This document shows positions 23,736 to 45,590 of a stretch of 49,116 bases of DNA, piece after piece; within the stretch, counting starts at the first letter, position 1; each line of letters starts with the position of its first letter. Under the pieces are notes generated by a model. It saw only the letters and a program-made list of their open reading frames with translations. It was not told the DNA's origin and made no database searches. The DNA is from Gemmatimonadota bacterium (GTDB lineage: Bacteria; JBHIER01; G020348925), in contig CP070758.1 in the NCBI GenBank assembly GCA_020348925.1, positions 1,307,755-1,356,870 of the forward strand, in the 5' to 3' direction. The translations under genes were made by a program, and so were the position numbers.

Positions 23736-25592
23736 TCAGGGAGTTACCGTGAGGATGATGGTGGCCATGCAGATCAGATCGAGAACATCGAGGGTCCCGT
23801 CATTGTTACAGTCTGCCGCCTGATACTGCTCCTCTGACAGCTCCGTTTTTCCCAATATGGCGTTCACCACAATGGCCAGATCCTGAACGTCCACAACGCC
23901 CTCGCCGGTCATGTCCCCGGGTATATGGGCCATTTTCAATATCCAACCGTCCACATCGAGAAGGGCGACAATGGGCTTGGAGCTCAAGATGAGCTCAAAG
24001 GTCTGTGTCTGCAAGCTGTCGAAAATGACGAATGTCTCCTCCCCAAACTGGGTTATGAAGGTGACGTCGACAGGCATGGTGAAGGGGGCCGTGTTGGTCT
24101 GGACCTGTTCGATGGTCAGATCCACGCTATAGCCTCCACTTTGCTCGACCATCGTCCAGGAGTAATCATATTCAGGATAGAACTCGCCGTAGATCCATTC
24201 CTGAAAGAACCAGCCCAATTCCATCCCGGAGACCGCTTCGCACAGGGACTGAAAGTCCTCCGTGACTGCCGTTCCGTGTTGGTACTGGCTGTCATAGTAA
24301 GCCCGGAGGATATCGAAAAAGACGGGATCCCCCACCACATGCCGCAGCATATGTAGCACCCACGAACCTTTGTTGTAACTGAGGCCGCCGTCGAAAATGC
24401 GCCAGATATTGGTGAGATCCGGGACGTAGATCGTTCCCTCGCCAAAGTATCTGTTCCTGTTCATATCTTCGAAATAGGCCTCTTTCCCGTGAACCTGTTC
24501 CCAGTATAAAGCCTCTGAATATGTGGCAAATCCCTCGTTGAGCCAAATATGGTGGAAGTCCCGGCAGGTGATCATGTCGCCCCACCACTGGTGGGCCAGC
24601 TCGTGGGCGATGAGGGCCTCACTCCATCCCCCAAGGCTTGTGCAGGTCTGATGCTCCATCCCTCCTCCAAAAATAAACTCCGCCTGGCCGTACTTTTCGT
24701 CAAGAAAAGGGTACGGGCCGAAGAGGTCGGAGAAAATTGCCAGCATGTCTTTGGTCTTGGCGTAGGTTGACCGGAGGTTTTCCAGGTGATCGGGGAACAC
24801 GTAGAACTGGATCTCCATGGAATCCGTCGGGGAGTATTTGTAATAATCGGAGTAAGTTGCATATTCATAGATTGCGACCGAGACGAGGTATGTGGTGATG
24901 GGGTAGCTTTCATGCCACCAGTACGTTTCGGTGTCTCCGTTGTCAGTAACTTCCCGGAGGACCCCGTTGGAGGCGACAATCATCCCTTCGGGAACAGTCA
25001 CCCTGATGTCGACGGAATCGGCTTTATCAGAGGGTTGATCCTTACACGGCCACCAGTTGCGGGCCCCAAAGGGCTCGCTCAAACTCCAGATCATGGGCCT
25101 GCCGGCATGAAGGTCGAAGCCGAAGGAACCCAGACCGCTTGTGGCCGGATTGCCTTCGTAATCGATGACTATGCCGACAGATTCACCGGTCGCATAGGAT
25201 CTCTCGAGATCGATATCGAGGAGATCGTGCTGATGCGTGAAGGAAGTCGGTGTTCCGGAAAGGGTGATTTGAGACACCGTCATGTTGTTCAGAAGATCCA
25301 CCTCAATGTGATCGATGGGATCGCCCACCACCTCAGCCCTCATCTGGACCGTTCCCGCCAATCGGCGGAGATCGGGATCGACGCTCAGGTCGATGTTGTA
25401 ATACCGAACATCGTACTGTTCCTGGTTGACCGTCTGCATGGAGATTGCCGCCTGTCGCTTCATGTACCGAAACATCTCGGCCTTGCGCTCGTGGATGGTG
25501 TCCAGAACATCGGGGGTCAAAACCGGCCACTGGGCCGATGCACTGCTCATCGATACAAGAGAGAACAGCATGACACATACTATTTTCTTCAT
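23736..25592 (-). CDS. Secreted M1-family aminopeptidase with C-terminal dockerin-like domain
   Basis: 618 residues, ATG 25592 with AAGGAAAA upstream and a signal peptide (1-20, ending ASA). The exopeptidase motif GGGMEH is at 309-314 and the zinc site HELAHQWWGD at 330-339 (His330, Glu331, His334), with Glu353 in NEGFATY as third ligand. Residues 559-614 hold two calcium-binding repeats, GDMTGEGVVDVQDL and ADCNNDGTLDVLDL, which match a type I dockerin. It would remove N-terminal residues from peptides outside the cytoplasm; the dockerin could bind a cohesin-bearing partner. No cohesin is in the window. It is convergent with the M64 gene. Confidence 0.93.
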   Translation of the reverse strand: MKKIVCVMLFSLVSMSSASAQWPVLTPDVLDTIHERKAEMFRYMKRQAAISMQTVNQEQYDVRYYNIDLSVDPDLRRLAGTVQMRAEVVGDPIDHIEVDLLNNMTVSQITLSGTPTSFTHQHDLLDIDLERSYATGESVGIVIDYEGNPATSGLGSFGFDLHAGRPMIWSLSEPFGARNWWPCKDQPSDKADSVDIRVTVPEGMIVASNGVLREVTDNGDTETYWWHESYPITTYLVSVAIYEYATYSDYYKYSPTDSMEIQFYVFPDHLENLRSTYAKTKDMLAIFSDLFGPYPFLDEKYGQAEFIFGGGMEHQTCTSLGGWSEALIAHELAHQWWGDMITCRDFHHIWLNEGFATYSEALYWEQVHGKEAYFEDMNRNRYFGEGTIYVPDLTNIWRIFDGGLSYNKGSWVLHMLRHVVGDPVFFDILRAYYDSQYQHGTAVTEDFQSLCEAVSGMELGWFFQEWIYGEFYPEYDYSWTMVEQSGGYSVDLTIEQVQTNTAPFTMPVDVTFITQFGEETFVIFDSLQTQTFELILSSKPIVALLDVDGWILKMAHIPGDMTGEGVVDVQDLAIVVNAILGKTELSEEQYQAADCNNDGTLDVLDLICMATIILTVTP

Positions 25593-35242: not shown

Positions 35243-36490
35243 ATGTTGGTTTTTATGAGCGATATTCATTTGACTGATGGGACATCGGGCAAGACAATAA
35301 AGTCAGGGGCCTTTAAGAAGTTTTCCCTGTTTCTTGAGGATATGATCGGGACAGCGACGGCGAAGGAGCTCGAGATCGTCTTCTTGGGTGATATCTTCGA
35401 TGTCATAAGGTCCGACTATTGGCTCAACTCGAGCATCCGCCCCTGGTCTGGAATCGATGACAAGGACGGTCAGGGAAAAGGGCTCAAGGACTACGCGGGA
35501 GAAATTGTGGGAAGGATCTGTAATAATTCTGAGAACAAGGCATCCGTTGATTACCTTAGGGAACTGCAGGATAAAATGGTGGGAAAGGGGATGCCTCTGA
35601 AGATTACGTATGTCGTCGGAAACCATGATTGGCTGATAAACCGATATCCGGAAACAAGGGTCGCCATTGCGAAATTCTTGGGCATGGACGATCCTGATCG
35701 ATACCAGGAGGCCGCTTTTCCAACGGAGTGGTTCTGGGAAAAGTACAGGGCTTTTGCCCGTCATGGAGACATATACGATCCGTTCAATTTTGATGGGAGG
35801 AGAGATGCATCCTCGTTGGGGGATGCAATAGTGATTGACCTGGTCAACAGATTTCCCAAGGCAGTCGAGGATGCGATCGGTTCTGCAGAGGACCCCGATC
35901 TTATCAGTCAGCTGAGGGAGATTGACAATGTGAGACCTCTTGTTGATATCCCCTCGTGGATTCAGGGAGCATGCCGAGGGGCTCGATCCGTAGAAATCGT
36001 GGAGAAGGTGAAAGAAATCTGGAACGATCTCGTGGATTATTTTCTCAAGATCGAATTTGTGAAGCAGCATGACAGACCCTGGAGGCTTGATGCCGTTGAC
36101 GCATTACAGTGGGGGCTCCGGATCAGTAAGCACCTTCCCCTCAAAGAGATCGCCAACCTCCCTCTCAGGAAATTTCATAGAAGTCGGACCGACTATACGG
36201 AGAGAGCCTACCGTGAAGAGCATGTTCGGAGAAACGAGGCCGAGTTTGTGCTCTACGGTCATACCCATAACTATGAGATCCAACCGCTTGATAATGTCCC
36301 GATGGCGGGGGAATCAAAACGGAAAACCTACTTCAACACTGGTACGTGGCGATTGCTCCACGTGAGGACGGCCTATGACACCGAGAGTCAGGAATTCCAG
36401 AGTTGGAATGTTATGACGTTTATTACCCTCTACCTGAATGGCGAAAGAGAAAATAGAGAATTTGAGGTATGGCATGGCGCTCTGGGATAG
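35243..36490 (+). CDS. Metallophosphoesterase (calcineurin-like)
   Basis: 415 residues, ATG 35243 with AAGGGGG upstream. The five metal motifs are visible: DIH (Asp7, His9), GDIFD (Asp50), GNHD (126-129), a His-containing segment in the middle (ARHGDIYDP) and GHTH near residue 333. A long insert between the second and third motifs and another between 190 and 310 make it larger than a simple UDP-sugar or phosphodiesterase. It is cytoplasmic by sequence. Substrate unknown. The next gene starts 41 bases downstream, so they may share a transcript, but no functional link is evident. Confidence 0.88.
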   Translation: MLVFMSDIHLTDGTSGKTIKSGAFKKFSLFLEDMIGTATAKELEIVFLGDIFDVIRSDYWLNSSIRPWSGIDDKDGQGKGLKDYAGEIVGRICNNSENKASVDYLRELQDKMVGKGMPLKITYVVGNHDWLINRYPETRVAIAKFLGMDDPDRYQEAAFPTEWFWEKYRAFARHGDIYDPFNFDGRRDASSLGDAIVIDLVNRFPKAVEDAIGSAEDPDLISQLREIDNVRPLVDIPSWIQGACRGARSVEIVEKVKEIWNDLVDYFLKIEFVKQHDRPWRLDAVDALQWGLRISKHLPLKEIANLPLRKFHRSRTDYTERAYREEHVRRNEAEFVLYGHTHNYEIQPLDNVPMAGESKRKTYFNTGTWRLLHVRTAYDTESQEFQSWNVMTFITLYLNGERENREFEVWHGALG

Positions 36491-36531
36491 GAGTTGACCG
36501 GAGTGTTGTGATCCGAGAAAGGACGGGAACG

Positions 36532-39096
36532 ATGTCGGAAATCACACTTGATGATCTATCACTCGAAAACGTTGAGCTCACGCCGCGTGTTCTCCACCTC
36601 AGAAAGACCTATTTCAAGGCCGTGCCGGAGATATGTATTGAGCGGTCCCGTTTGATCACCGCATTCAGTCTGCAGCACGACCTTTTCGACCACGACCGTA
36701 TCTCCACTCTCGACAAGGCCAGGATGTATCGGTTCGTACTGGAGAATCGCGTCCCGGTTGTCTATCACAGCAAAGGCTACGAAGAGGGGATGAAACCCTT
36801 TGAGTTCAGCGATGGTTCTCTCTTTGCCGGCTCTACGACGAGTAAGTTCAAGGGGGTTCCTCTCTATCCTGAGTTTCTCGCCTTGGCTCTGTGGCCGGAA
36901 CTTTGGACTATTTCGAAGAGAGCGCGAAACCCATACCACATCACAGACTCGGAGGTCAAACATCTCAATTCCAAGATTTTTCCTCATTGGATGGAGAACA
37001 CCATCCTCGAATATGCCAGACAAAGATCGTACGAGGAGAACTTTGAGAAGTATGGGCTCAGAAAACACGCGCCTGAGTTGAAACTGCTTGAGCGTCTCGT
37101 CTTCTTCCTCGCCAGTAAGCCCAATTGCATATCTCACACCATTCCGGACTTCTCAAAAGCGATTGGAATCGGTCTGCGAGGCATCATCGATGAGGCCAAG
37201 AGGAAGGAATTGGAAACTTCCGATATCTCCCGGAAAGAGTTTTACAGGGCCGTGTCCGAGGTTCTTGAGGGAATAATCACGTACTCGCGAAACCTCGCAG
37301 ATGAGGCCCAGAAATTGGCGGAGGACGAGAAAGATCCGGTGCGGAAGGAGGAACTTCATGATATTGCGAGGATCAATCGCCGGGTTCCGGAATCTCCGGC
37401 GCAGACCCTGCGTGAAGGACTGACCACCGTCTGGATATGCTGGACCGCGATCCACCTTGAAAACCCGAACGTCGGACTCAGCCTCGGAAGATTGGACCAG
37501 GCGCTGTACGATCTCTACCGAAGGGAGAGAGACGGAGGGACGTTGAGCGTGGAGGAGGCGGTCGAGCTTATCAGTTGTCTGTGGCTCAAGATCGGGGACC
37601 ACGTTCCCAGCATACCGGATGCCGCTGAGCAGCTCTTCGGTGGCACGGGTTCCAACCAGGCCATCACCATGGGTGGGGTTGATGCGGATGGCCATGACGC
37701 CGTGAACGATCTGACCTACATCATGCTCAGGGCCACCGAGCTGATGAAACTGCGCGACCCCAACCCCAATGCCAGGTACTACCTTGGCGTAAACTCCAGG
37801 GAGTACCTGAGACGACTGTGTGAGATCAATATGAATACAGGGGCCATTCCGGCGATTCACAATGACAGGGCTGTTATCAAGGCGCTGATGGCCAAGGGTG
37901 AGACGATCGAACAGGCGCGGGACTACGGCGTCATCGGCTGTGTGGAGCCCGGGAGTAACGGCAGGTTCTACGGTCATACTGCAGCCATCCTGTTGAATTT
38001 GACCTCCGCCCTTGAGCTGACACTCTTCAACGGAAGACACCGGCATACGGGTCTGGATGTCCTGATCAGCAAGGAGACCGGAGATCCGTCCGCATTCAAC
38101 ACCTTCGAGGACCTGAAAACAGCATTTGAGGAGCAGATTCGCTGGTTGGTCGAGCGGACCACAGCGCTGAATAACCTCCTGGGAAAGACGCACCAGGACT
38201 TTTATCCCACTCCCATTCTGTCCTCCTTCTTTGAGGGTCCTGTGGAGAAAGGGAGAGACCTCATTCGGGGCGGTGCCGTTATCAATTCATCGGGTGTGGC
38301 CATAATTGGGCTGGCGGATGTGGCCGATTCCCTGAGCGCCATAGAGAAGGTCGTCTTTGAGGAGAAAACCCATTCCTTCGGAGATGTTCTGATCGCTCTC
38401 AAGAAGAACTTCTGGGGATATGAAAGCCTGCGGACACGGCTCATGAATCCGGACAAGACTCCGAAGTACGGGAACGAAGATCCGGAGGCCGATGCCACAG
38501 TCTCATGGATCGTGCACTTGTTGGACGCATCATTTGGGGAGAAAGAGAACTATCGGGGCGGCAAATACCGGGTCGGGTACTGGACTATGACCAATCATGC
38601 GGGTTTCGGTCGTTTCATGGGAGCCACACCGAACGGGCGTAAGGCCCACGAGAATTTCACCAGCGGCATTACGCCTGTCTCGGCAGTCACACCCTATCTT
38701 ACCAAGGCCCTCAACTCTGTGGCAAACCAGCCTGCAGAGTGCCTGGCAAACGGCGTGGCTTTGAATATGAAATACACACCTGAACCCGGAGACAGAAAGA
38801 AGATGCTCGACAATTTCGTCGCCTCGGTCGAGGGGTACTTCGACGAAATGGACGGGAAACGCGACGGAGGCATGGAGGTCCAATTCATTATCACGGACCA
38901 CAGGACCCTTGCCGACGCCGTAGCCCATTCTGACAAGTATCCTGAACTCCTGGTTCGGGTCTCCGGATATACCGCATATTTCAAAGACCTGAATCCTCAA
39001 ATGCAAAAGGAGATCATTGATCGGACAGAATACCTGCTGTCCAGTGGTCGGATGGTCGAGTTTGAGCCGTTTCCACTACCTGCGGAGAGGAGATGA
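36532..39096 (+). CDS. Glycyl radical enzyme of unknown substrate
   Basis: 854 residues from ATG 36532, preferred because AAGGA lies eight bases upstream; a frame starting 63 bases earlier overlaps the previous gene. The thiyl-radical Cys470 and base Glu472 are in GVIGCVEPGSNGRF, and the glycyl radical is Gly812 in LVRVSGYTAYF near the C-terminus. The family includes pyruvate formate-lyase and the glycerol, diol and choline enzymes; GCVEP points to the dehydratase/lyase branch rather than pyruvate formate-lyase, where two adjacent Cys are needed. It requires an activating radical SAM enzyme, supplied at 42107-43033. It is oxygen-sensitive, implying an anaerobic host. Confidence 0.93.
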   Translation: MSEITLDDLSLENVELTPRVLHLRKTYFKAVPEICIERSRLITAFSLQHDLFDHDRISTLDKARMYRFVLENRVPVVYHSKGYEEGMKPFEFSDGSLFAGSTTSKFKGVPLYPEFLALALWPELWTISKRARNPYHITDSEVKHLNSKIFPHWMENTILEYARQRSYEENFEKYGLRKHAPELKLLERLVFFLASKPNCISHTIPDFSKAIGIGLRGIIDEAKRKELETSDISRKEFYRAVSEVLEGIITYSRNLADEAQKLAEDEKDPVRKEELHDIARINRRVPESPAQTLREGLTTVWICWTAIHLENPNVGLSLGRLDQALYDLYRRERDGGTLSVEEAVELISCLWLKIGDHVPSIPDAAEQLFGGTGSNQAITMGGVDADGHDAVNDLTYIMLRATELMKLRDPNPNARYYLGVNSREYLRRLCEINMNTGAIPAIHNDRAVIKALMAKGETIEQARDYGVIGCVEPGSNGRFYGHTAAILLNLTSALELTLFNGRHRHTGLDVLISKETGDPSAFNTFEDLKTAFEEQIRWLVERTTALNNLLGKTHQDFYPTPILSSFFEGPVEKGRDLIRGGAVINSSGVAIIGLADVADSLSAIEKVVFEEKTHSFGDVLIALKKNFWGYESLRTRLMNPDKTPKYGNEDPEADATVSWIVHLLDASFGEKENYRGGKYRVGYWTMTNHAGFGRFMGATPNGRKAHENFTSGITPVSAVTPYLTKALNSVANQPAECLANGVALNMKYTPEPGDRKKMLDNFVASVEGYFDEMDGKRDGGMEVQFIITDHRTLADAVAHSDKYPELLVRVSGYTAYFKDLNPQMQKEIIDRTEYLLSSGRMVEFEPFPLPAERR

Positions 39097-39099
39097 ACA

Positions 39100-39588
39100 A
39101 TGGCTTCGAGAATGAAACGGATCGCCTTACGGCCTTTGCCCTATCTGTTTACCGACTGGGTGGGGCAGCTCATCGCAAGGCTTTTCTCCAGAAAGCTCAT
39201 GAGACAGTTTTGTGGGGAGGTGACGGATACGTTTGTCGAACTTCTCCTGAAAGGTATGGATCTGGCCTTCTGTTTATCCAAGGGGTTTCGCAAGAATATC
39301 AGGGGCTTCGAGGGACGGTACCTTTTCCAGACGGCGGATGGTCTTATCGTCACATCCGCCACCTTTCGGAAAGGCAACATGAGGGTCCATGAGGCGGCCA
39401 TCGATGACTGGGATGTCCGGGTCACTTTCAAAGATGCTCCTGCGCTGAACGCGTTCTTGTTCTCCAAGGACCAGGACATCCTCGATTCGGTTCTGGCCGA
39501 TGACGTTGAGGTCGACGGCAATATGAACTACGTCTATAAGTTTGGCTTTATGGCCAGAGACCTGAGCCGGAGGTTAGGTGTGGGGTAG
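39100..39588 (+). CDS. Small SCP2-like protein coupled to the glycyl radical enzyme
   Basis: 162 residues, ATG 39100, three bases after the glycyl radical enzyme stop codon with GGAGATG upstream, so translational coupling is likely. The last two thirds (from about residue 65, FRKNIRGFEGRYLFQTADG to DGNMNYVYKFGFMARDL) have the alternating strand pattern of sterol-carrier-like (SCP2) domains, whose hydrophobic tunnel binds lipids; the match is by pattern only. The first 40 residues are basic with two hydrophobic stretches and may be a membrane-facing helix. It might bind the substrate or shield the radical enzyme. This is unproven. Confidence 0.7.
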   Translation: MASRMKRIALRPLPYLFTDWVGQLIARLFSRKLMRQFCGEVTDTFVELLLKGMDLAFCLSKGFRKNIRGFEGRYLFQTADGLIVTSATFRKGNMRVHEAAIDDWDVRVTFKDAPALNAFLFSKDQDILDSVLADDVEVDGNMNYVYKFGFMARDLSRRLGVG

Positions 39589-39757: not shown

Positions 39758-40345
39758 ATGAATACACGGCGAGTAGTTATTGATTACGGCCACGGAGGTT
39801 CCAAGCCCGGGGCTGTGTACGGCGGGGTCGAGGAGAAGACAGTGAACCTGTTCACCGGGCAGGAGCTTTACCATGAATTGCACAAGCACGATGAAGGACA
39901 GGATATTCAGGTGATGCTGACGCGGGACTCCGATTATGACATCCCGATTTCCGTTCGGTGTCAATTGATCAACCAGCATCATGAACGACAGCCGATAGGG
40001 CTCGTGATTTCGGTACATTACAATGCCGTGGGCGATCCGTCGGTGTCTGGTTTCGAAGTCTACTATTTGGCGAGCTCTGTGAAGGGGCTCGCCGCCGCCA
40101 GGGAGGTTTTACGGGTCGTTCAACAGGCGGGAATTCCTGTGCGCGGACAGGGACTCATCACGACCGCCCAGCTCGGTCGCAGATTGGCCATGATCCACAA
40201 AACCAAACCCCCCGCAATCTTGATCGAGGTGGGGTATCTGACGAACGTGCTGGATCGGAATAATGCACAAGATCCAAGTTTCCGGACGAATGTGGCCCGG
40301 GCGGTTGCCAAAGGAATACGGGCGTATCTGGAGAAGGAGGGCTAA
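39758..40345 (+). CDS. N-acetylmuramoyl-L-alanine amidase (Amidase_3) without signal peptide
   Basis: 195 residues, ATG 39758 with AAGGAGGGCGT upstream. The zinc site follows the family: His12 in DYGHGG, Glu26 in VEEKTVNL, His87 in SVHYNA, with catalytic Glu157 in LIEVGYLTN. It cuts the bond between muramic acid and the stem peptide. It has no signal peptide, unlike housekeeping AmiA/B/C enzymes, and is just the catalytic domain; phage endolysins and lysis proteins look like this. It opens a tight four-gene cassette with overlapping or abutting reading frames (ending at 41926). Confidence 0.93.
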   Translation: MNTRRVVIDYGHGGSKPGAVYGGVEEKTVNLFTGQELYHELHKHDEGQDIQVMLTRDSDYDIPISVRCQLINQHHERQPIGLVISVHYNAVGDPSVSGFEVYYLASSVKGLAAAREVLRVVQQAGIPVRGQGLITTAQLGRRLAMIHKTKPPAILIEVGYLTNVLDRNNAQDPSFRTNVARAVAKGIRAYLEKEG

Positions 40346-40347
40346 AC

Positions 40348-40824
40348 ATGACAAGTGAGAGGGGAGCTCCTGCAAGTTTTCTGCTGCGGAACAGTAAAGG
40401 CTATCCGGATTTTGTGATGACTATGCTGGTGGCGGTGACGTTGGCGCTGTTTGTGGTTATTCTGTGCTGGATGGCACTCAATCTGGTCGGTTTGCACAGC
40501 ATCTCCGCCACGCCGGCCTCGCAAGCCGGGACCGGGGATATTGAGGGGAGCGTCGTGTCGGCGGGTGGGTCGGTGCAGCTGTTGAACAGCTTCAACGAGA
40601 ATGCCCGTCTGATTGTGCTCGGTCTCTGTTCATCGGTCTTCAGTCTGGCTGGGGCCTACTATTTGCGCCGGAGGTCTCATGACATACATTACGAATCCTG
40701 GCAGAAAACCAAGGTGGAATTAGGACTGCAAGATGCGGGTGCACGTATCCCTTCGGGGTATGTGTCACCGGTGAGGTCCACATTGACGCATGCCAATTAC
40801 GACGATGAGGAGGAGGATATATGA
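40348..40824 (+). CDS. Two-span membrane protein of the amidase cassette
   Basis: 158 residues, beginning two bases after the amidase stop codon. Hydrophobic spans lie at about 23-48 (VMTMLVAVTLALFVVILCW) and 86-104 (ARLIVLGLCSSVFSLAGAYY), separated by a Ser/Gly/Ala-rich loop; the C-terminal 50 residues are polar and acidic at the end (DDEEEDI). The size and two spans suit a holin-like or adaptor role, but no family was recognised. Its end overlaps the next gene by four bases (ATGA), indicating translational coupling. Confidence 0.8.
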   Translation: MTSERGAPASFLLRNSKGYPDFVMTMLVAVTLALFVVILCWMALNLVGLHSISATPASQAGTGDIEGSVVSAGGSVQLLNSFNENARLIVLGLCSSVFSLAGAYYLRRRSHDIHYESWQKTKVELGLQDAGARIPSGYVSPVRSTLTHANYDDEEEDI

Positions 40825-41450
40825 GCATGTTCTCACTTTTTGATATGTTCCGCACAGGGGCGTGGATTGACTATGCCATCATCATCGTTTTTACATTGAT
40901 CGCACTCTTTTTGGTCGGGCATTTTATGAGACAAGGACCGAGGAGGTGGCTGGCGTTCGCGGGGATATTGTTGGGCGGTGGACTGGCGCTTTCCTGGACG
41001 GCGAGACGTCATCGCTATACGGAGAAGAAGCTGAAGGCGCATAACGAGGCGATCGAGCGGCTGCGGGCCATGGTCGCCAAACGCGATCAAATGATTGAGG
41101 AGAACAACGCGACAATCCGGGAGCTGGAGGCGGAGCGGGCCAACCTGCGGCCCGACATCGATGAGGACAAGGCCAAGATTCGGGAGATCGAGGAGAAGAT
41201 CGACGCCCGCCGGCGGAACCACGAGCGCATGGCTAAGGTGCTGGATATGCAGGAGGAGGATATCGCGGGATATGTGAAACGGATGGAAAGTGAGTCGCCG
41301 TTGCTGTCTGTGGGAGAGATTCTGACCAAGCACGGCTTGGCAGGAAAGCGCCCTGAAACGCAGCCGACCGTACCTGATCCGGCCGGTCCGGAGAAAAGGG
41401 CGGAGGCGATTGCCGTCGCCGGGTTTGTGATGAAAGGAGACGTCGAATGA
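40821..41450 (+). CDS. Two-span membrane protein with long coiled coil
   Basis: 209 residues. Two membrane spans (about 16-36 and 42-59) are followed by a heptad-rich coiled coil from about 65 to 140 (EKKLKAHNEAIERLRAMVAK, then IREIEEKIDARRRNHERMAK) and a Pro-containing, mostly polar tail. It overlaps both neighbours by four bases. The coiled coil is on the same side as the C-terminus and could reach a partner such as the next protein or the amidase. No recognised family; a structural or scaffold role is inferred. Confidence 0.8.
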   Translation: MSMFSLFDMFRTGAWIDYAIIIVFTLIALFLVGHFMRQGPRRWLAFAGILLGGGLALSWTARRHRYTEKKLKAHNEAIERLRAMVAKRDQMIEENNATIRELEAERANLRPDIDEDKAKIREIEEKIDARRRNHERMAKVLDMQEEDIAGYVKRMESESPLLSVGEILTKHGLAGKRPETQPTVPDPAGPEKRAEAIAVAGFVMKGDVE

Positions 41451-41926
41451 AGAGGATCGTGCCGGTGTTCGTCCTGTGCCTGATTCTGTCCCAATCGGTA
41501 TGGAGTCAGACCGAAAATTGGGAAGCTGCGTATCAGGAGTTGAGCGTCCAGTATGAGGAGGCACTGAGGCGGCTGGCCATGCGGGATACGCTCATCCAGG
41601 TGATGCAGGCGGCCTTGGATACAGCCCGGCTCATGAGAGAGAACACCCAGGGACTTCTGACAGATGTGGATTCCCTGAGAGCGCAAAACGAATCGCTGGC
41701 GATCAAATATGATCGCATGATCGCCCTTTCCGATTCCATCCAAACCCTGTTGAGAGAGAACGTCTCACTCTCACAACAATCGGTGTCCGAGCTGGATAGC
41801 GCTATCGTGGATCTGAACAAAAAGTATAATCGTGCGGTGCGCGAGTGTCTGCGCCCGTGGTACCTCCGCTGGGAATTCTATATGGGTGGGCTCATAGGAG
41901 GTCTCATCGGCATGGCCGTAAAATGA
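41447..41926 (+). CDS. Exported coiled-coil protein with C-terminal membrane anchor
   Basis: 159 residues. A signal peptide (1-20, ending VWS-Q) precedes a coiled coil of about 100 residues (from NWEAAYQELSVQYEEALRRL to LNKKYNRAVREC), then a short RPWYLRWEFY segment and a C-terminal Gly-rich hydrophobic span (about 143-158). This gives a periplasmic coiled coil tethered at its end, a build also seen in spanins and tail-anchored scaffold proteins. It overlaps the preceding gene by four bases. Function unknown; co-transcription with the amidase suggests wall-related activity. Confidence 0.78.
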   Translation: MKRIVPVFVLCLILSQSVWSQTENWEAAYQELSVQYEEALRRLAMRDTLIQVMQAALDTARLMRENTQGLLTDVDSLRAQNESLAIKYDRMIALSDSIQTLLRENVSLSQQSVSELDSAIVDLNKKYNRAVRECLRPWYLRWEFYMGGLIGGLIGMAVK

Positions 41927-42106: not shown

Positions 42107-43033
42107 ATGGAACCCTTGCCCCTCATCGTTGATATCAAAAGGCACAGCCTCGAGGACGGCCCCGGTATCCGGAGCGTCGTCTTTTTCAAGGGATGTCCCC
42201 TCCGGTGCGTCTTTTGCCAGAATCCCGAGACGCAGGATCCAAGGATGGAGATCTCCTTTTCTGTCAATGCGTGCATTCGGTGTGAGATGTGTCAGAGGAT
42301 CTGTCCAGAAGGGGCGATACGCTTCGACCTCCCCGGGCGAATTCAGCGGGACAGGTGTCTTCGCTGTGGTGCGTGTGCCGCCGTCTGTCCCGGCAAGGGA
42401 TTACGAGTTGTGGGATCGTACTTTCCTGTTGAAACGCTCAGCGAAATTCTTCTGCGAGACCTTCCCTTTTACCGCCATTCAGGGGGTGGTGTGACCCTCG
42501 CCGGAGGTGAACCCACCCTCCATCTCGACTATCTCGAACCCCTCTTACAAGCTCTTAAAGCCAGCGAGATTCATGTTGTCCTGGAGACCTCAGGTTATTT
42601 CGACTACGGCTCTTTTCGACGGCGGATCCTACCTTATATTGACATTATTTACTACGACATCAAGGTGGCTGATCCGCAGGTCCACCGGAAATATACAGGC
42701 AAGACAAACGGAAGGATCCTGGGTAACGTCCGCCGCTTACTCCAAGAGAGAGCGGCTGTGGTTTACCCCAGGATACCCCTTATTCCAAATATTACTGCCA
42801 CGAGGGAAAATCTGTCTGCGATCCTTCATATTCTGTGTGACGCTGGGGCGGAGCATGTCTCCTTGCTTCCCTATAATCCCATGGGAAGAGAGGCGGCTGC
42901 GGGTCTCGGAAACGTCACGGTGCCTCTTCCGGAGTCATTCATGAGGCCTGATGAGGAAAAGGCGATGTGCAGCATGTTTGCCGGGCTGATTCAAGAGCTG
43001 GAGAGGTCGCCTCGCCCGCGCCAGGAGGTCTGA
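42107..43033 (+). CDS. Glycyl radical enzyme activating enzyme
   Basis: 308 residues. The radical SAM motif is GCPLRCVFC (Cys30, Cys34, Cys37), preceded by the family start IKRHSLEDGPGIRSVVF. It contains two inserted 4Fe-4S ferredoxin clusters, CIRCEMCQRICP (Cys56, 59, 62, 66) and CLRCGACAAVCP (Cys84, 87, 90, 94), as in activators of dehydratase-type glycyl radical enzymes rather than pyruvate formate-lyase. TLAGGEPTL is the SAM-binding GGEP motif. It abstracts the hydrogen from the glycine of its partner, here most likely the enzyme at 36532-39096. The two are separated by the amidase cassette, about 3 kb. Confidence 0.95.
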   Translation: MEPLPLIVDIKRHSLEDGPGIRSVVFFKGCPLRCVFCQNPETQDPRMEISFSVNACIRCEMCQRICPEGAIRFDLPGRIQRDRCLRCGACAAVCPGKGLRVVGSYFPVETLSEILLRDLPFYRHSGGGVTLAGGEPTLHLDYLEPLLQALKASEIHVVLETSGYFDYGSFRRRILPYIDIIYYDIKVADPQVHRKYTGKTNGRILGNVRRLLQERAAVVYPRIPLIPNITATRENLSAILHILCDAGAEHVSLLPYNPMGREAAAGLGNVTVPLPESFMRPDEEKAMCSMFAGLIQELERSPRPRQEV

Positions 43034-43442: not shown

Positions 43443-45590
43443 ATGAAGTTCGAAATCACAGGTCAAGTGGAAGAGGCCGAAAGCGGCCGCGGCGTGCCGG
43501 GCGTTGTCGTAAGCGCCTTTGATAAAGACCTCTTATTTGACGACCTCCTGGGGGAAGCGATGACGGATGCGCAGGGAAAATTCCGTCTGGAGTACGCCGA
43601 GGGAGAATTCAGAGACCTGTTCGAAAAGAGGCCTGACATCTATCTCACGGTCAAGACCGTGTCCGGCAGGACGCTCTCCACGACTGAGAAGGCGACCCGA
43701 TTCAATGCGACACCGCACGAGGAATTTCGGTTGAAGATTTCAGCAGAGGCACTGCGGGCGGCCGGGCTCCGGACGGCCGAGCCTGTTCCGACGATTTCCG
43801 AGGAGACGCTGACGACGCTTACCTGTCTTTGGCATCTCGATGCGGAAGATGAGTTGGGCGAGCAAATAAAGGCGGATCTCAAGGGGAAATCTTCAATTCT
43901 CGAGATGATGAAAGATTACATGGCGGAGCTGAAAGGGGAACTGGACAACGACGCCCCCACCTTCCGCAAACTCCACAGGCTGTTTGAGCTCGGTTCGATG
44001 CCGGAGAATGTGGAGGGCCATTATTACGGGGTCGCCCTCGGCCTGCGCACAGGCGACCTCCGTGGTATCGCCGCCGAGCACGGAAATCTGTTGGGCTATC
44101 TGTGGGGGGAGTCGATCGGAGGGGTGGCCCCCTGGGTGGGGAAGAGCTTTACTCCCATGTCTGAGGGAGACCGAAGACAGGTTATCGGATCGGCCCTTCC
44201 TGACGACGTCGCAGTGTCCCGGGGTATCAACCATTTTAACGTTCTTGAGCATGCTCCGGTAAATATTGCGTTGAACACGATCCTGAATTTCTTGTGGCAC
44301 CTGAAGGAGGTGCCGGAGGCCGAGAGGCTGAGATACGGACATGAGCGGAACGGGGGACATTTCGTGTACCATCGCGCCTTTTCCATGTGTGATAAGACGC
44401 CGAGAGAAGTCTTCCGTCTCAATTATCGTTTCCGTGGGCTGGACAACAATCCCCCGCTCAACTATCTCATTGACGAGTTGGTGGAGATCGCCGACGGGCT
44501 GTACTTGGGACAGCTGCTGTTTGCGACTGCCCGTCTGCTGGAGCGATACGACTCCGAAGCGGACAGCGAGACGTATAAATATCAGCATTTCGGATATTTT
44601 CTGCTTTTCCGGGAGGATTGGAATGGGGAGGCGAGGCGGCTCTTCCCCCATCTTGAGATGCCCCGGGCTGCCGTGACGAGCAGGCTGCCTTCATCGGCAC
44701 TGTCCGATGATGTCCTGATCTCAAAAATCCCGGATAAATTCACCGGACTCACTCTGGCCGACCCTGTGGATGGCGATGTGGACAGTGCCCTGGTGGATGA
44801 GATACAGAAGGACCTGTCCGACTCAGGGACAGTCATCCGACTGCTCAAGTCTTACTCCGATCAACTTATGGAACATCCGGATACCCGATCGCCGGTCTTT
44901 GCGAAACTGCACACACTGTTCAACGCGGGGGTGGGCCTGACAACAATGGACGGTTTCTATCGCGGGGCGCTCGTCTCGTGGCAGAGCCAGGGGCTGCTGG
45001 CCGCTTTCGATATCAATACGATCAACATCGCATGGCGGGCGGCACGCGCCTTCTCACCCTGGACGGGGAAGCGCTTCGACCCTGTTGACGAGGCGCGGCT
45101 CCTGGAATTGACCGATAACTGCGAGACGATGGACGTTCCCACCTTCTTCTGTGCCAATACGGTGGTCTTTCGCACGGCCAGGGAGAAGTTCACCCGAGAA
45201 ATCATGAAGGCGGTTGGAATCTGGATAGAGGACGCGACTGAGGAGGAACGTCGTTTGCACGAATATGATGCGAAAACGTTCTTCTTCATCAGTAAGTATG
45301 CCAGGAGTGTTCATCCGGAGAACAAAGGAAAATCGGTTTTTCAGTTCAATTACCGCTGGAAAGCGCTGCGCAATCCCATTCCTGATCGTTATTGTATCGA
45401 CGAGCTGGTGCAGATTGCTGAGGGACTCTATCTGGGCAAGGTCTATTATGCGACGAATCCGTTGGAAGCCTGGGATCCTTCGACGGACCCTTCGACGTAT
45501 AAATATCGGCTCTTCGAGTATTTTATCCTGATGGATGATGAATGGCATGGGCGCAGATTGCGCATCGGATTTGATCTTGAAAATATCTAA
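43443..45590 (+). CDS. Protein with a transthyretin-like N-terminus and an internally duplicated unknown domain
   Basis: 715 residues, ATG 43443 with AAGGAGG ten bases upstream. Residues 1-100 look like a transthyretin/carboxypeptidase-regulatory beta-sandwich (GQVEEAESGRGVPGVVVSAF, MTDAQGKFRLEY). Then two copies of a ~245-residue domain occur at about 152-400 and 464-709: for example APWVGKSFTPM against SPWTGKRFDPV, IDELVEIADGLYLG against IDELVQIAEGLYLG, and TYKYQHFGYFLL against TYKYRLFEYFIL. Cys and Trp are not specially placed. No signal peptide. The unit was not recognised; a structural or binding role is only a guess. Confidence 0.85.
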   Translation: MKFEITGQVEEAESGRGVPGVVVSAFDKDLLFDDLLGEAMTDAQGKFRLEYAEGEFRDLFEKRPDIYLTVKTVSGRTLSTTEKATRFNATPHEEFRLKISAEALRAAGLRTAEPVPTISEETLTTLTCLWHLDAEDELGEQIKADLKGKSSILEMMKDYMAELKGELDNDAPTFRKLHRLFELGSMPENVEGHYYGVALGLRTGDLRGIAAEHGNLLGYLWGESIGGVAPWVGKSFTPMSEGDRRQVIGSALPDDVAVSRGINHFNVLEHAPVNIALNTILNFLWHLKEVPEAERLRYGHERNGGHFVYHRAFSMCDKTPREVFRLNYRFRGLDNNPPLNYLIDELVEIADGLYLGQLLFATARLLERYDSEADSETYKYQHFGYFLLFREDWNGEARRLFPHLEMPRAAVTSRLPSSALSDDVLISKIPDKFTGLTLADPVDGDVDSALVDEIQKDLSDSGTVIRLLKSYSDQLMEHPDTRSPVFAKLHTLFNAGVGLTTMDGFYRGALVSWQSQGLLAAFDINTINIAWRAARAFSPWTGKRFDPVDEARLLELTDNCETMDVPTFFCANTVVFRTAREKFTREIMKAVGIWIEDATEEERRLHEYDAKTFFFISKYARSVHPENKGKSVFQFNYRWKALRNPIPDRYCIDELVQIAEGLYLGKVYYATNPLEAWDPSTDPSTYKYRLFEYFILMDDEWHGRRLRIGFDLENI

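What the first reader, a model, noticed from the sequence alone, without database searches (positions are those of the whole stretch)
39758..41926. Tight amidase plus three membrane/coiled-coil protein cassette, no recognised family
Four genes abut or overlap by four bases: a zinc amidase with no signal peptide, a two-span membrane protein, a two-span protein with a long coiled coil, and an exported coiled-coil protein with a C-terminal anchor. The order is like a phage lysis module (endolysin, holin, spanin), but no phage structural genes are in the window and the cassette sits between a glycyl radical enzyme and its activase. It could be a domesticated lysis or release system, or a wall-remodelling machine spanning the envelope. 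The membrane and coiled-coil layout is seen directly; the function is inference.
Basis: partly seen in the sequence, partly recalled or inferred. Interest (0 to 1): 0.65.

Follow-up and report, generated by a model that had tools for sequence, protein, structure and literature searches.

The report
Conserved lysis-like four-gene wall-cutting cassette
Four tightly packed genes, a wall-cutting enzyme with no export signal plus three membrane proteins of no known family, recur together in distantly related bacteria with no phage nearby and are kept intact by selection, so this is a real, undescribed bacterial system that may work like a tamed phage lysis module, although that function is not shown.

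Summary
Window 39758-41926 holds four ORFs: gap of 2 bases, then two 4-base overlaps. Only the first has a known family (Amidase_3, PF01520). The other three match none.

Outside the window, the 2-TM gene finds the whole cassette, in the same order, in a 4.98-Mb genome of another phylum (G345, perhaps Caldithrix abyssi). In that phylum 10 of 40 genomes carry the 2-TM gene; the first three genes recur in order and the fourth is found in 7 of the 10. Flanks are ordinary metabolic genes. Zinc ligands are invariant; dN/dS is 0.04-0.08 in the closest pair. One relative shows the same locus without the cassette. The family was absent from about 640 other genomes searched and from viral collections.

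So this is neither prophage debris nor chance: it is a chromosomal accessory system, mostly vertically inherited. Whether it is a domesticated lysis/release device is open. For: unexported amidase beside a class-II-holin-like 2-TM protein. Against "spanin": heptad-preserving shuffles of P0003 hit spanin profiles equally well, charges put its coiled coil in the cytoplasm, and the fourth protein has no lipobox. No phage module or contractile sheath is shared by carriers. Best reading: a lysis-like release or wall-opening cassette (about 0.42).

The parts
39758..40345 (+). Gene 1: N-acetylmuramoyl-L-alanine amidase (Amidase_3, PF01520), 195 aa, no signal peptide; H12, E26, H87 and E157 invariant in 10 homologues
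   Evidence: E 7.7e-35; alignment A6; tree; N-termini
40348..40824 (+). Gene 2: 2-TM protein, 158 aa, no family; conserved N-terminal NSKG[FY]PDF, FGLAGSYTVRRFKxDDHY in/after TM2, acidic C-terminus EDI; predicted N-in/C-in (class II holin-like)
   Evidence: no family; A5
40821..41450 (+). Gene 3: 2-TM hairpin followed by a coiled coil about 95 residues long and a conserved C-terminal I-x-[VI]-x-G-[YFH]-x-L, 209 aa, no family; overlaps gene 2 by 4 bases
   Evidence: A7; helix 40-158; spanin matches not above shuffled control
41447..41926 (+). Gene 4: Sec signal peptide, coiled coil, C-terminal transmembrane anchor, 159 aa, no lipobox, no family; overlaps gene 3 by 4 bases
   Evidence: (A8)

Best explanation
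A chromosomal, phage-independent lysis-like cassette that lets an unexported cell-wall amidase reach the wall, giving controlled local wall opening, cargo release or lysis of some cells. SHOWN: an intact Amidase_3 with no export signal is encoded in tight linkage with a 2-TM protein and two coiled-coil membrane proteins; the set is conserved across two phyla and under purifying selection; it is not in a prophage. INFERRED: the 2-TM protein (N-in/C-in, charged tails) is the holin-like gate that moves the amidase across the inner membrane; protein 3, by its charges a membrane-tethered cytoplasmic coil, holds or gates the amidase/2-TM complex; protein 4, a periplasmic coil anchored in the inner membrane, guides or restrains wall cutting. 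This is the division of labour of a Type 10 secretion system or lysis module, but built of unrelated accessory proteins and with no recognisable outer-membrane-disrupting spanin.
For: Amidase domain intact with invariant zinc ligands and catalytic Glu and no signal peptide in 10 homologues, so it needs a non-Sec route to the wall; ChiP and TtsA of T10SS likewise lack a signal sequence and depend on a holin (PMC13284979). The genome has two other amidase genes of 534 and 308 aa. Operon order and near-zero gaps are conserved. The fourth gene occurs in 8 of 11 carriers and in 0 of 12 non-carriers tested (weak hits at E 0.0076 in one non-carrier and 1.2e-4 in carrier G413 discounted), even where it has separated from the others (G389 on another contig, G395 behind an inserted gene). 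dN/dS 0.04-0.08 for G412/G413. Cassette amidases form one clade, 100/99. No viral relatives of genes 2-4. GC 0.557 against 0.54-0.55 for neighbours.
Against: No profile-level homology of gene 2 to any holin: PF11351 GTA_holin E 0.29 and phrog_944 E 0.02 are noise. Spanin matches fail the shuffle control. Gene 4 has no outer-membrane anchor. No cargo gene travels with the cassette in the neighbourhoods read. Three carriers (G412, G413, G415) lack a clear gene 4. Catalysis, export and release are untested.
Confidence: 0.42

Rival explanations
1. Non-lytic envelope-remodelling complex. The amidase is brought to a site (division, polar shape, large envelope machine) by the 2-TM and coiled-coil proteins and cuts peptidoglycan locally as part of growth, not to release cargo; the coiled coils act as amidase regulators, as EnvC/FtsEX do for AmiA/B.
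For: Strong conservation of the cytosolic tails of gene 2 (NSKGxPDF, RRFKxDDHY, EDI) and of the C-terminal motif of gene 3 suggests protein contacts rather than a bare pore; the gene 3 coil is predicted cytoplasmic and no outer-membrane anchor exists; stable vertical locus next to dinB in several genera.
Against: An amidase with no export signal is odd for such a role; the cassette is dispensable (absent from 30 of 40 genomes of the phylum, including intact loci), unlike core division genes.
Confidence: 0.25
2. Release module for a phage-like particle (extracellular contractile injection system or gene transfer agent) encoded elsewhere in the genome.
For: G000 has a contractile sheath and gp19-like/DUF4255-like genes at 2.02 Mb (the last two by eye); lysis genes of gene transfer agents can lie far from structural genes (general knowledge).
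Against: The sheath is found in 3 of 11 carriers and 2 of 30 non-carriers (hypergeometric P about 0.11), and is absent from the complete G345 genome; the portal is found in 3 of 11 carriers and 3 of 30 non-carriers (P about 0.18), and not in G000.
Confidence: 0.1
3. Remnant lysis module of a lost prophage, not now functional in the host's interest.
For: Layout resembles phage lysis modules; a short amidase without signal peptide is typical of endolysins, and the cassette profile scores viral amidases above most canonical bacterial ones.
Against: No phage genes seen near it in 11 genomes; synteny with dinB and with the MTHFR-like and LDH/DHH/aroC genes across genera; purifying selection; no viral relative of genes 2-4 in IMG/VR or 50,697 phage records. 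The amidase clade is not nested inside viral amidases, though the tree backbone is unresolved.
Confidence: 0.06
4. Abortive or population-level self-lysis triggered by stress (for example DNA damage, given dinB next door).
For: Adjacent to dinB in G345, G392 and G393; accessory distribution with losses.
Against: dinB is not adjacent in G000, G409, G412, G413 or G395; the cassette seems to have its own promoter, with TAnnTTTG-like elements by eye upstream in several carriers; no specific PADLOC defence match, only coiled-coil-like hits; no sensor gene travels with it.
Confidence: 0.1

Closest known systems
Type 10 secretion systems (ChiWXYZ of Serratia; ChiH/ChiP; YenTc release cassette)
   Same: Chromosomal, phage-like set: wall hydrolase without signal sequence, small multi-span membrane protein, accessory envelope proteins in one operon
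   Different: Different hydrolase class (Amidase_3; PMC13284979 places TtsA and ChiP with N4 Gp61-type muramidases), no detectable holin or spanin homology, no linked cargo or regulator, no outer-membrane-anchored component
Phage endolysin-holin-spanin modules with an Amidase_3 endolysin (e.g. phrog_435 endolysins; IMG/VR loci L063-L114)
   Same: Short Amidase_3 starting at the catalytic domain, small TM proteins alongside
   Different: Cassette amidases are a separate clade (100/99); genes 2-4 have no counterpart in the viral loci; the chromosomal setting is stable
Rz/Rz1 and unimolecular spanins
   Same: TM plus coiled-coil architecture; gene 4 has N-terminal signal, coil and C-terminal TM like a u-spanin
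   Different: No lipobox or outer-membrane lipoprotein; gene 3 has an extra TM and a coil predicted cytoplasmic; profile matches not above the shuffled control
EnvC/FtsEX-regulated amidases AmiA/B/C
   Same: Amidase_3 enzyme working with a coiled-coil partner
   Different: Those amidases are exported; no LytM, FtsEX or AMIN domain was matched here

Membership tests
Amidase_3 (PF01520) | Profile match above gathering cut-off with intact zinc ligands and catalytic Glu | tested here: met
   120.9 bits against cut-off 27; H12, E26, H87, E157 invariant; PDB relatives CwlV 1jwq, AmiC 4bin and others
Phage lysis module inside a prophage | Adjacent phage structural, replication or integrase genes | tested here: not met
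   None seen among the neighbours of 11 loci; G000 has no portal gene
Holin | Small protein, 1-4 TMs, hydrophilic charged tail | tested here: met
   126-158 aa, 2 TMs, about 6 K/R after TM2, N-in/C-in by charge
Holin | Homology to a known holin family | tested here: not met
   Pfam and PHROGs searches of 11 members: best E 0.0017 (a copper-chaperone family) and 0.02; holin families only E 0.15-0.29
Holin | Forms membrane lesions that release the endolysin | not testable with these tools
   needs expression
Two-component spanin (Rz/Rz1) | Outer-membrane lipoprotein partner | tested here: not met
   No lipobox in gene 4 of six genomes
Two-component spanin (Rz/Rz1) | Inner-membrane subunit with periplasmic coiled coil | tested here: inconclusive
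   K+R means N 0.5, loop 2.5, after TM2 4.5 favour a cytoplasmic coil; spanin profile matches fail the shuffle control
Unimolecular spanin | N-terminal lipoprotein signal plus C-terminal TM | tested here: not met
   C-terminal TM present, lipobox absent
Type 10 secretion system | Holin plus unexported peptidoglycan hydrolase, chromosomal, outside a phage | tested here: inconclusive
   Hydrolase and setting met; holin only by architecture
Type 10 secretion system | Release of a defined cargo | not testable with these tools
   No linked cargo seen
eCIS or GTA release module | Co-occurrence with sheath or capsid/portal genes | tested here: not met
   Sheath 3/11 carriers vs 2/30 non-carriers; portal 3/11 vs 3/30

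The most novel reading that the evidence does not exclude
A fully bacterial, non-phage holin-endolysin-like release or wall-opening machine found in one phylum and one other deep lineage, whose gate and coiled-coil parts belong to new protein families and which works without a spanin, i.e. an independently assembled analogue of the Type 10 secretion system.
Probability: 0.3. Interest if true: 0.72.

Novelty: new variant of a known kind. Interest (0 to 1): 0.5.

Why it matters
Holin-endolysin-based release by bacteria (Type 10 secretion) is known to me mainly from Enterobacterales and clostridia and is tied to phage-derived parts. A conserved, selected, phage-independent cassette in a deep lineage, with three new protein families, would suggest that the unexported hydrolase plus membrane gate solution is more widespread than recognised, and gives four small genes that can be tested directly in a laboratory host. 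If it is instead an envelope-remodelling device, it is a new way of controlling an amidase.

Tried and rejected
(1) Spanin homology of gene 3 from PHROG/TIGR LysB hits: rejected after the heptad-preserving shuffle control. (2) GTA_holin_3TM and phrog_944 matches of gene 2: noise level, and phrog_944 maps to the middle of a 235-aa profile. (3) eCIS or GTA release module: no co-occurrence. (4) Viral relatives: six IMG/VR scans; A5 none, and A6 only generic Amidase_3 endolysins. (5) Genome-wide spread: single-protein genome-contig scan with the amidase found only distant Spirochaetota/Omnitrophota amidases with other neighbours. (6) Flanking att-like repeats in the window: none convincing. (7) PADLOC: hits only at the level of coiled coils, LeoBC/JetC/LmuB. 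(8) Single-sequence AlphaFold for gene 4 was poor and was not used for fold search; alignments with loci from the genome search were not sent to the structure tool because its stated rule does not list them. (10) Promoter scan uninformative.

Full report
What is there. Intergenic distances are +2, -4 and -4. The cassette lies between a glycyl radical enzyme plus one small gene (39100-39588, no family) and a GRE activase. Its GC (0.557) matches its neighbours (0.54-0.55). Proteins 2-4 have no credible match in Pfam, NCBIfam or PHROGs or in phage records by tblastn.

Recurrence. A search of 386 family-spread genomes with protein 2 found one relative, in G345, a 4.98-Mb single-contig genome; its locus holds all four genes in the same order, between dinB and an unrelated gene. 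In the phylum of G345, 10 of 40 genomes (G345 among them; the other nine 57-77% identical to it) carry the protein-2 gene. Genes 1-3 are together in that order in the loci read (in G387 the amidase runs into the contig end), with varied non-phage flanks. Gene 4 is adjacent in G000, G345, G387, G392, G393 and G409. In G395 it follows one inserted gene, and its second half lies on another contig. In G389 it lies on another contig, in the neighbourhood of the MTHFR-like gene that also follows the cassette in G392. In G412, G413 and G415 no clear gene 4 was found (G413 has a weak coiled-coil hit at E 1.2e-4, G412 one at 0.008). None of 12 non-carriers tested had a convincing gene 4 (one hit at E 0.0076). 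Profile A5 found nothing credible in the other 384 family-spread genomes (best spurious hit 17.6 bits, broken frames), in 64 genomes of a second phylum or in 168 of a third. Those phyla were chosen because their GltX best resembles that of G000, a weak criterion.

Inheritance. In G345, G392 and G393 the cassette follows dinB. In G393 it is followed by an LDH-type gene, a DHH gene and aroC; in the non-carrier G390 (97% complete) dinB is followed directly by an isocitrate-dehydrogenase-type gene, DHH and aroC with no cassette. G386 and G388, of the same genus as G345, also have dinB without the cassette next to it. So it is an accessory set at a fairly stable chromosomal locus, lost (or not gained) in many lineages. 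dN/dS (NG86, own script) for G412 against G413 is 0.038, 0.078 and 0.051 for genes 1-3; where measurable at larger distances it is 0.09-0.39, with saturation of dS in several pairs.

Not a phage module. No portal gene occurs in G000, and the portal is present in only 3 of 11 carriers and 3 of 30 non-carriers; a contractile sheath is present in 3 of 11 and 2 of 30. My hypergeometric calculations from these counts give about 0.18 and 0.11. In a 75-row amidase tree the 11 cassette amidases are one clade (100/99), next to neither viral nor cellular amidases with support; the backbone is unresolved, so an ancient phage origin is neither shown nor excluded. Six IMG/VR scans found no relative of proteins 2-4, only generic Amidase_3 endolysins.

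Is it a lysis cassette? For: an intact wall amidase without export signal needs a route across the inner membrane, and a two-span N-in/C-in protein is its closest partner in all carriers; this is how T10SS hydrolases such as ChiP and TtsA are described to work (PMC13284979). Against: the spanin resemblance of protein 3 fails its control. Real sequence: phrog_89 E 5e-5. Heptad-preserving shuffles of P0003: Rz-like spanin matches in 4 of 5, best E 4e-6. The charge distribution of 11 homologues (K+R 0.5 before TM1, 2.5 in the short loop, 4.5 after TM2) favours a cytoplasmic coil, and protein 4 has a cleavable-looking signal with no lipobox in six genomes, so no component is anchored in the outer membrane. 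A single-sequence model of protein 3 shows one helix from residue 40 to 158.

Verdict. The function remains inference. I put 0.42 on a lysis-like release or wall-opening cassette (T10SS-like in logic, not shown to be a member), 0.25 on non-lytic envelope remodelling, and the rest on other readings.

Limits. Topology is by charge and hydropathy only. Absence of phage genes near the loci was judged by reading ORFs, plus profile searches for portal and sheath only.

Noticed in passing
G000:C1:2014000-2033900 (L150), about 670 kb from the window: eCIS-like or tail-like cluster: contractile sheath (PF17482 E 7.7e-12), a gp19-like tube protein and a DUF4255-like protein by eye; part of the stretch reads N.
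   Followed up: partly
window 36469-39096 and 42107-43033: Glycyl radical enzyme below the cut-off of every NCBIfam equivalog (TIGR01774 490.8 bits against 678.2), with its own activase: substrate unassigned.
   Followed up: no
window 39100-39588: 162-aa protein between the glycyl radical enzyme and the cassette, no Pfam match (resembles SCP2-like lipid-binding proteins to my eye only).
   Followed up: no
window 43443-45590: 715-aa protein with an N-terminal carboxypeptidase-regulatory-like domain (below cut-off) and what looks like two internal repeats; no NCBIfam match.
   Followed up: no
window 23736-25592: M1-type peptidase (by eye) with a C-terminal dockerin-like DMTGEGVVDVQDL repeat and signal peptide.
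   Followed up: no
L051, L053, L056, L049 upstream of the amidase: TAnnTTTG-like elements (e.g. CCTATATTTTTG) reminiscent of Bacteroidota-type promoters upstream of the cassette, suggesting its own promoter in several carriers.
   Followed up: partly
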